Shown: positions 12,118 through 13,094 of the stretch, piece after piece
Position numbering within the stretch: the first letter of the stretch is position 1
Layout: the number at the start of each line of letters is the position of its first letter
Assembly: GCF_018205345.1 (NCBI RefSeq)
Contig: NZ_JADRHM010000018.1
Span: 1-38,377, forward strand
Reading direction: 5' to 3'
Length of the DNA stretch: 38,377 bases
Source of the DNA: Fusobacterium sp. DD2
GTDB lineage: Bacteria > Fusobacteriota > Fusobacteriia > Fusobacteriales > Fusobacteriaceae
The notes under the pieces: generated by a model
Seen by the model: only the letters and a program-made list of their open reading frames with translations
Told to the model about the DNA's origin: nothing
The model's database searches: none
Position numbers and translations under genes: made by a program

Positions 12118-12569
12118 ATGAAGAAATATATTTTAGGGGTGTTTTTTGCACTTTTTGCTCTGATGCTATCAGGATGCTGTGGAGCTAGAGTAAGACCGGA
12201 AAACACAGTAGTAAAAGGTCAAATCTAGTAGATGTAGATGCAAGAATAGGTTATTGGAATGGACTTAATATTGTTGTAACCAATAAGACTCAGTTAGGTA
12301 TAGATGTATTATGGAAAGATTCAACTATAAATGGTAAAAAGATTAAAAATCATGAGTATAATGGTTTTGTAGAACCTGGAAACTGGATAGCAGAAGATGC
12401 ATATGTAGATGGAGAGGTCAATTTTCCTATGAATTTTTCTTTAAAAGTAAGGCATGGAATGACAGTTGAAGAGGTAGATATGCTTTTAAGAGATGTTGGA
12501 GACAGGGTTACTGTTCAAAGAGATTATATGACAAATGCTATTAAAGCTGTTCTTCCAAGAAATTATTAA
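12118..12569 (+). pseudogene. Small lipoprotein gene interrupted by a one-base frameshift
   Basis: From the ATG at 12118 (GAGGAGGGAAAG upstream) the frame encodes a lipoprotein signal peptide (MKKYILGVFFALFALMLSGC, lipid-modified Cys at residue 20). It stops at TAG 12226-12228 after 36 codons. The frame one base earlier (codons in register with 12222) is open from about 12204 to TAA 12567-12569 and reads as a normal protein: NLVDVDARIGYWNGLNIVV, NKTQLGIDVLWK, then VLPRNY at the end. Adding one base, for example to the AAAA run at 12213-12216, would join both parts into one lipoprotein of about 150 residues. This is either a real one-base loss or an assembly error. The family of the mature part is not recognised. 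A terminator follows at 12592. Confidence 0.8.
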
Positions 12570-12591: not shown

Positions 12592-12634
12592 AAAGAGGCT
12601 GTTGCTTTTTATAAGTTTGCAATTGCCTCTTTTT
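12592..12634 (+). terminator. Intrinsic terminator after the lipoprotein gene
   Basis: AAAGAGGC (12592-12599) and TTGC (12602-12605) pair with GCAA (12619-12622) and GCCTCTTT (12625-12632), with one 2x2 internal loop; T-run to 12634. It closes the 11652-12569 unit. Confidence 0.8.
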
Positions 12635-12670
12635 GTATATTACAAATAGTTTGATTATCTATGGATTTAC

Positions 12671-12715
12671 AAAAAAGAGTAAAGAGAGGTACTTTGGCCT
12701 GATACCTCTCTTTAA
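12671..12715 (-). terminator. Intrinsic terminator on the minus strand
   Basis: A perfect 12-bp stem (TACCTCTCTTTA 12703-12714 with TAAAGAGAGGTA 12680-12691), extended by GAG/CTC with one bulge, and an 11-nt loop. On the minus strand the stem runs directly into TTTTTT (complement of 12671-12676). On the plus strand no T-run follows, so the direction is minus, although no minus-strand gene lies to its right. Confidence 0.75.
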
Positions 12716-12766
12716 CTCTAGAAATTAAAATGTTTAAATGTAAAATTTAAGGAAATGTCTTATGAC
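12671..12766 (-). ncRNA. Candidate small RNA, about 95 nt
   Basis: The segment between a near-consensus minus-strand promoter (12773-12800) and a minus-strand intrinsic terminator (12671-12715) contains no ORF worth calling. A start about seven bases after the -10 gives a transcript of roughly 95 nt: a 50-nt AU-rich single-stranded 5' part including CAUUUCCUUAAA, then the strong terminator hairpin with loop UCAGGCCAAAG. The UUUCCU stretch and the stem's ACCUCUCUUU could pair with Shine-Dalgarno sequences, as trans-acting small RNAs often do. It is divergent from the lysine-riboswitch leader. I do not recognise it as 6S, tmRNA, RNase P or SRP RNA. This is inference from promoter and terminator only. 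Confidence 0.55.
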
Positions 12767-12772
12767 AATGCT

Positions 12773-12800
12773 ATTATATCACACAGAACATTAAAGTCAA
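12773..12800 (-). promoter_or_regulatory. Sigma-70 promoter of the candidate small RNA
   Basis: On the minus strand: TTGACT (12795-12800), a 16-base spacer and a perfect TATAAT (12773-12778). It is among the best promoter matches in the window, yet it points away from the riboswitch operon into a region without coding sequence. Confidence 0.65.
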
Positions 12801-12840
12801 CAAATATTTTGATTATCTTATAATATTTTTTTTATTAATA

Positions 12841-12869: not shown

Positions 12870-12924
12870 ATATATTATACATTTATATTAAATTGGAGTA
12901 TACTTTACACAACAATAGAATAAT

Positions 12925-13084
12925 AGATAGGTAGCGAAGGACAAAAGTAATTACACTCAGCTTGGCAGGCGATCAGGTGTGATGAAAGGGGAATTTGCTG
13001 AAGTAGAAAAGAAGGCTGAACTTTTTTATTAGTGGTATGGATAATATTCATATTACTCCATTTTATTGTAGTGGAAATCTATCT
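12925..13084 (+). promoter_or_regulatory. Lysine riboswitch (L-box) aptamer
   Basis: Closing stem P1 pairs AGATAG (12925-12930) with CTATCT (13079-13084). The L-box landmarks follow in order: the AGCGAAGGACAAAAGTAA segment corresponding to the GCGA...AGUA part of P2; a hairpin closed by TTACAC/GTGTGA; the conserved GATGAAAGGGGAA; then TTTGCTGAAG (consensus GCCGAAG), whose TTGCT pairs back to AGCGA. P4 is AGTAGAAAAG/CTTTTTTATT (10 bp). P5 is ATGGATAATAT/ATATTACTCCAT with one bulged C. An intrinsic terminator follows at 13095 and spmA begins at 13157. Known lysine riboswitches of this layout shut transcription off when lysine is abundant. The call rests on motif and stem recognition, not a covariance-model score. 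Confidence 0.85.
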
Positions 13085-13094
13085 TTAAATGTGT

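What the first reader, a model, noticed from the sequence alone, without database searches (positions are those of the whole stretch)
12671..12800. Orphan promoter-to-terminator cassette: candidate small RNA divergent from the lysine riboswitch
On the minus strand, TTGACT-16 bases-TATAAT is followed about 60 bases later by a 12-bp hairpin ending in six Ts. No ORF lies between them and no minus-strand gene is near. Such cassettes usually encode trans-acting small RNAs. The 5' part is unstructured and contains UUUCCUUAAA, and the hairpin arm contains ACCUCUCUUU; both could block ribosome binding sites.
Basis: partly seen in the sequence, partly recalled or inferred. Interest (0 to 1): 0.66.

Follow-up and report, generated by a model that had tools for sequence, protein, structure and literature searches.

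The report
Conserved fusobacterial small-RNA gene
This looks like a real gene for a small non-coding RNA of about 97 bases, conserved in three groups of fusobacteria, whose end some bacterial viruses use as their insertion site; what it regulates is not yet known.

Summary
The cassette is real: minus-strand TTGACT-16-TATAAT with TG before the -10 (12800-12773), a predicted RNA of about 97 nt, a 13-bp hairpin (12714-12680) and TTTTTT (12676-12671). It is the only such cassette in the window; 0 of 60 shuffles had one. Conservation settles it: 11 of 12 genus genomes carry it (the miss is 71% complete), and so do all 5 held genomes of two other genera: 16 of 98 phylum genomes, 17 copies. Two boxes, UUUCCUUAAAU and UUUAAUUUCUAC, barely change; the terminator stem changes with compensation; the promoter scores 10-12 of 12 in all 17 copies; flanking DNA drifts. 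No conserved ORF and no Rfam match. In two genomes a prophage sits in the gene's 3' half and restores it. Best reading: an Hfq-independent base-pairing sRNA whose UUUCCUU box suits Shine-Dalgarno sequences. That step is inferred: three pattern scans found no conserved target, the divergent lysine-riboswitch gene is not one, and no transcript data were at hand.

The parts
12795..12800 (-). -35 hexamer TTGACT (TTGACA in 9 of the other 10 genus copies)
12773..12778 (-). -10 hexamer TATAAT with TG one base upstream (extended -10); TG present in all 17 copies
12671..12767 (-). predicted sRNA, about 97 nt; start inferred from the -10 spacing, end from the T-run
   Evidence: model match 12768-12673; 5' and 3' ends not measured
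12756..12767 (-). 5' mini-hairpin UGUC-AUAA-GACA; kept in the 11 genus copies, absent in the other two genera
12745..12755 (-). box 1 UUUCCUUAAAU, likely seed, nearly invariant in 17 copies
12731..12744 (-). linker carrying a 10-nt insertion found only in this genome among the 17 copies
12718..12729 (-). box 2 UUUAAUUUCUAG (UUUAAUUUCUAC in the other 16 copies)
12680..12714 (-). terminator hairpin, 13 pairs; sequence varies among relatives with compensating changes
12671..12676 (-). T-run of the terminator
12920..13089 (+). divergent neighbour: lysine riboswitch aptamer, weaker than in relatives

Best explanation
The cassette is a gene for a small non-coding RNA of about 97 nt, transcribed from a strong sigma-70-type promoter on the minus strand and ended by an intrinsic terminator (shown by sequence and conservation; not by transcript data). 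The RNA most likely acts in trans by base pairing: the unpaired stretch with UUUCCUUAAAU and UUUAAUUUC pairs with mRNAs, box 1 being suited to cover Shine-Dalgarno sequences of the AAGGA kind and so block translation (inferred). The genus has no recognisable Hfq, so it would act without it (Hfq absence tested). Its 3' half doubles as an attachment site for prophages, which carry a copy of that half and so leave the RNA gene whole after insertion (shown in two genomes).
For: Strong match in 11 of 12 genus genomes and, with covariance models, in 3 of 3 genomes of genus g4 and 2 of 2 of g6: 16 of 61 family genomes judged real and the same 16 of 98 phylum genomes at E 2e-12 or better. Core 84% and promoter 74% identical among five genus representatives, flanks 31-53%. 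Promoter 10-12 of 12 with TG in 17 of 17 copies. Terminator stem: 5 pairs with changes on both sides, reached by 1 of 500 shuffles; 96.1% of cells paired against 44-64% when slid. No conserved ORF. Gene order kept upstream (ClC channel gene near the sRNA in g1 and g6) while downstream genes differ. Hfq PF17209 0 of 12 genus genomes, control rings in 5 of 14. Prophage insertion at the gene's 3' half in G008 and G010 with direct repeats, integrase and phage structural genes, and a matching empty site in G007.
Against: No RNA-seq, Northern or target evidence. Complement sites of box 1 next to ATG and of box 2 are not more frequent than the reversed-pattern control, and the one site shared by two genomes proved antisense to a coding gene. 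T-runs are weak in several relatives (G007, G026a, G037). The family is missing from 11 of 14 genera of the family as held.
Confidence: 0.74

Rival explanations
1. A conserved non-coding RNA that acts on a protein or another RNA instead of pairing with mRNAs (for example a protein-titrating RNA or a sponge).
For: Long unpaired stretch conserved in full, not only a 7-10 nt seed; no conserved mRNA target found.
Against: No conserved fold other than the terminator and, in one genus, a 4-bp hairpin, which is unusual for protein-binding RNAs; no Rfam family similar. A sponge pairing with the trailer of a tRNA-Met gene was tested and the complement is not conserved.
Confidence: 0.15
2. A cis-acting partner of the divergent lysine-riboswitch operon.
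For: A lysine riboswitch lies within the 3-kb locus in 10 of 11 genus loci.
Against: The transcripts diverge and do not overlap; duplex energies against the neighbour's start region are ordinary (15 to 149 of 200 shuffled cores as good in seven genomes); in g4 the neighbours are unrelated genes.
Confidence: 0.04
3. An antitoxin RNA of a type I toxin-antitoxin pair: the opposite strand carries a 19-22 codon frame starting MSYDN.
For: The frame is open in 11 of 11 genus copies.
Against: Absent in all 6 copies of the other genera; substitutions at codon positions 1/2/3 are 64/37/47, no third-position excess; AAGGA lies only a few bases from the ATG; the frame runs through the sRNA promoter, whose conservation explains it.
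Confidence: 0.03
4. No gene: chance promoter and a terminator of the convergent plus-strand gene.
For: Promoter-like sites are common in this A+T-rich DNA.
Against: Conservation of promoter, core and stem in 17 copies; the T-run follows the hairpin on the minus strand only.
Confidence: 0.03

Closest known systems
FoxI and FoxJ, sigma-E-dependent sRNAs of Fusobacterium nucleatum (PMC11005410: abstract, section 5 and passages read)
   Same: Stand-alone fusobacterial sRNAs acting by base pairing without Hfq or ProQ; translation repression at C-containing seeds.
   Different: Sigma-70-type instead of sigma-E promoter; no cytosine stretch; about 97 nt against ~156 nt for FoxJ; other gene neighbourhood (FoxJ lies by ylmH).
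Hfq-independent Shine-Dalgarno-blocking sRNAs of low-G+C bacteria (recalled class)
   Same: Unpaired C-containing seed suited to SD sequences, followed by an intrinsic terminator.
   Different: No target shown; the seed UUUCCUU is shorter in C than the usual C-rich motifs.
RNA genes used as phage attachment sites (tRNA and tmRNA genes; recalled)
   Same: Integrase recombines in the 3' half of an RNA gene and the phage copy restores it.
   Different: Here the RNA gene is a short sRNA whose att repeat spans box 2 and the whole terminator.

Membership tests
trans-encoded base-pairing sRNA | own promoter in an intergenic region | tested here: met
   17 of 17 copies score 10-12 of 12 with TG
trans-encoded base-pairing sRNA | intrinsic terminator | tested here: met
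   stem in 17 of 17 copies, covarying in the genus; T-run weak in some
trans-encoded base-pairing sRNA | no coding capacity | tested here: met
   no conserved frame; longest frame in 11 genus copies 2-10 codons
trans-encoded base-pairing sRNA | conserved unpaired seed | tested here: met
   UUUCCUUAAAU in 17 copies, unpaired in the single-sequence folds of most
trans-encoded base-pairing sRNA | expression as a discrete RNA | not testable with these tools
   no transcript data held
trans-encoded base-pairing sRNA | mRNA target paired through the seed | tested here: inconclusive
   no enrichment or conserved site in 12, 12 and 7 genomes; only exact long matches were sought
FoxI/FoxJ | sigma-E promoter | tested here: not met
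   sigma-70-type hexamers with extended -10; the sigma-E motif itself was not at hand
any Rfam 15 family | gathering score reached | tested here: not met
   best sRNA model 18.7 bits against a cut-off of 56
Hfq-dependent sRNA | Hfq encoded | tested here: not met
   0 of 12 genus genomes, control rings
Cas12a crRNA-like RNA (box 2 recalls the recalled repeat UAAUUUCUAC) | matching GUAGA arm and Cas12a gene | tested here: inconclusive
   no GUAGA arm after box 2; TIGR04330 0 of 12, but its control rang nowhere
prophage attachment site | direct repeats at both ends, integrase, empty site in a relative | tested here: met
   for G008 and G010; not in the window's own genome

The most novel reading that the evidence does not exclude
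A core Hfq-independent regulator of fusobacteria that pairs through two boxes at once, important enough that unrelated tailed phages with related integrases have settled on its 3' half and carry a repaired copy of it, so that lysogens run on a phage-supplied half of the sRNA and terminator.
Probability: 0.22. Interest if true: 0.72.

Novelty: new member of a known kind. Interest (0 to 1): 0.5.

Why it matters
Fusobacteria are far from model organisms and lack Hfq, so how their sRNAs work is open; the studied ones come from the F. nucleatum group. This gives a second set of species (F. varium, F. mortiferum and relatives) an sRNA with mapped promoter, boxes and terminator, ready for deletion and pairing tests. 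Its use as an attB gives a concrete case of phages tied to a regulatory RNA gene.

Tried and rejected
Sponge idea: a perfect 10-nt complement of box 1 lies in a conserved 3' trailer of a tRNA-Met gene, but it is TTTATGGAAA in G006-G010 and TTTAAGAAAA in g2 and belongs to the trailer's terminator arm: rejected.

Targets: TTTAAGGAAA-ATG in 12 genomes, GTAGAAATTAAA in 12, TTAAGGAAA-ATG in 7: counts below the reversed-pattern control, which is a poor control for coding DNA. The one site shared by G000 and G005 in front of a frame beginning M(N/K)AIVINAPGA is antisense to what looks like a coding gene; its frame is 19 codons in one and 182 in the other: rejected. Neighbouring Gate gene as target: rejected.

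Weak model matches: L065, L067, L068 lack the core. Of 13 weak R2 loci listed, 11 were seen and looked like coding DNA or tRNA promoters; L093 and L094 were printed at a wrong place and not seen. One search hits inside the start of a glyoxalase-like frame (L012-L015, L018-L020) are chance (L013 read). Viral contigs: one chance 18-mer and none for the other pattern. The genome contigs pattern gave 19 stretches, one Fusobacterium (F. mortiferum An814), the rest taken as chance by organism only. Opposite-strand peptide and Cas12a: see rivals and membership test. G009's 342-aa neighbour is a FokI-type nuclease, not an integrase.

Limits: whether F. nucleatum itself has the gene could not be tested; no held genome could be shown to be that species. 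The 2021 Fusobacterium sRNA paper (doi 10.1038/s41564-021-00927-7, recalled) is not held, so a match to one of its sRNAs is not excluded. Not-in-print statement rests on searches of the held library only.

Full report
Observation. The minus strand at 12800-12671 reads TTGACT, 16 nt, TATAAT (with TG just upstream), about 52 nt without an ORF, then a 13-pair hairpin and six T. The RNA folds far better than shuffles because of the hairpin (z -4.59). By my script's criteria it is the only such cassette in the 38 kb, and 0 of 60 shuffles has one. The lysine riboswitch is divergent at 12920-13089.

Conservation in the genus. Searching 12 genus genomes with window 12660-12815, 11 have a match at E 5.8e-11 or better (own included); G006, 71% complete, has only chance matches. 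The aligned core reads UUGUCAUARGACAUUUCCUURAAUUACAUUUUAAUUUCUAC in nearly all; the window's own copy is the most diverged, with a 10-nt insertion and a final C to G. Among five representatives, identity is 44-53% upstream, 74% in the promoter, 84% in the core, 63% in the terminator and 31-33% downstream. The terminator stem is kept by compensating changes: 5 pairs with both sides changed among 7 distinct sequences, reached by 1 of 500 shuffles, and 96.1% of cells paired against 44.2-63.6% when slid.

Beyond the genus. A covariance model searched in 61 family genomes rings in 19 at E 0.1 or better. I read all of them: 16 genomes hold the core (11 of 12 in g1, 3 of 3 in g4 with two copies in G026, 2 of 2 in g6); three (G020, G031, G035) do not and were dropped. 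A sequence model with promoter over 98 phylum genomes finds the same 16 at E 2e-12 or better; 71 of 98 have something at E 1 or better, which I take as noise below the two half copies at 2e-5. All 17 copies have hexamers at 10-12 of 12 and a TG extended -10. Boxes UUUCCUUAAAU and UUUAAUUUCUAC are shared by all three genera; the 5' mini-hairpin belongs to g1 only.

Neighbourhood. The sRNA faces away from the lysine-riboswitch/Gate genes and the ClC channel gene in most of g1; ClC is also upstream in g6; in g4 the neighbours differ. Downstream genes differ almost everywhere: IclR regulator, transporter, IS element, CbiJ, HSDR_N-type protein and others. That is what an insertion hotspot would give.

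Prophages. G008 and G010 hold a second copy of the 3' half of the gene (box 2 and terminator), 37.6 and 40.2 kb away. Next to each, inside the element, lies a 342-aa tyrosine integrase (PF00589). The repeats are identical over more than 50 bases. Ten proteins from the two elements were scanned: terminase, portal, major head, tail sheath, tape measure and baseplate proteins of tailed phages, with different sheath and portal families in the two. Host DNA past the distal copy matches the DNA that follows the sRNA gene in prophage-free G007 (83% over 834 bases, 77% over 1332 bases). So the gene is the attachment site and integration leaves a whole sRNA gene.

Mechanism. Shown by sequence: promoter, terminator, conserved unpaired boxes, no Hfq in 12 of 12 genus genomes. 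Inferred: base pairing, with UUUCCUU resembling the anti-Shine-Dalgarno and so suited to cover AAGGA sites. Against: exact-complement scans gave no excess and no conserved site, and the divergent neighbour is no target. F. nucleatum is reported to lack Hfq and ProQ while its FoxI and FoxJ work by pairing (PMC11005410, passages), so Hfq-free pairing has precedent in the phylum.

Known or new. No Rfam 15 family reaches its cut-off. Searches of the held papers show F. nucleatum work but none on sRNAs of these species; the main F. nucleatum sRNA catalogue is not held. I file it as a new sRNA family of a known kind, with expression and targets untested.

Noticed in passing
G000:C67:4391-4519 (L190), outside the window: The 3' trailer of a tRNA-Met(CAU) gene is nearly invariant for about 75 nt (AAACCCCAC and CUAACCCUAAA boxes) and then ends in a diverging terminator; E 1e-13 or better in 16 of 61 family genomes (12 of 12 in the genus, 2 of 2 in g2, 2 of 3 in g11). 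Likely a second, tRNA-linked sRNA; Rfam sees only the tRNA.
   Followed up: partly
12920-13089: The window's lysine riboswitch scores 60.8 bits against 111-122 in 8 of the 9 other loci with one (G005 78.4) and has changes in otherwise kept junction letters (AGAGGUGC to AG--GUAGC, CCGAA to CUGAA, GGAGUGC to GGAAAUC): possibly failing or altered.
   Followed up: partly
L163/L164 (G008:C1 about 714.9-752.6 kb) and L165-L167 (G010:C1 about 2597.3-2637.6 kb): Two different tailed-phage prophages with related 342-aa integrases share the sRNA gene's 3' half as attachment site.
   Followed up: yes
L169:2523-3551 (G009) and L173:3553-4632 (G026): A FokI-type nuclease and an HSDR_N-type protein lie just downstream of sRNA copies: defence genes at the insertion hotspot.
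   Followed up: no
12593-12636 +: The plus-strand gene ending at 12569 has its own hairpin with T-run (AAAGAGGC...GCCTCTTTTT), tail to tail with the sRNA terminator.
   Followed up: no
L172 and L173 (G026): One g4 genome has two full sRNA genes at unrelated places with different terminators.
   Followed up: partly
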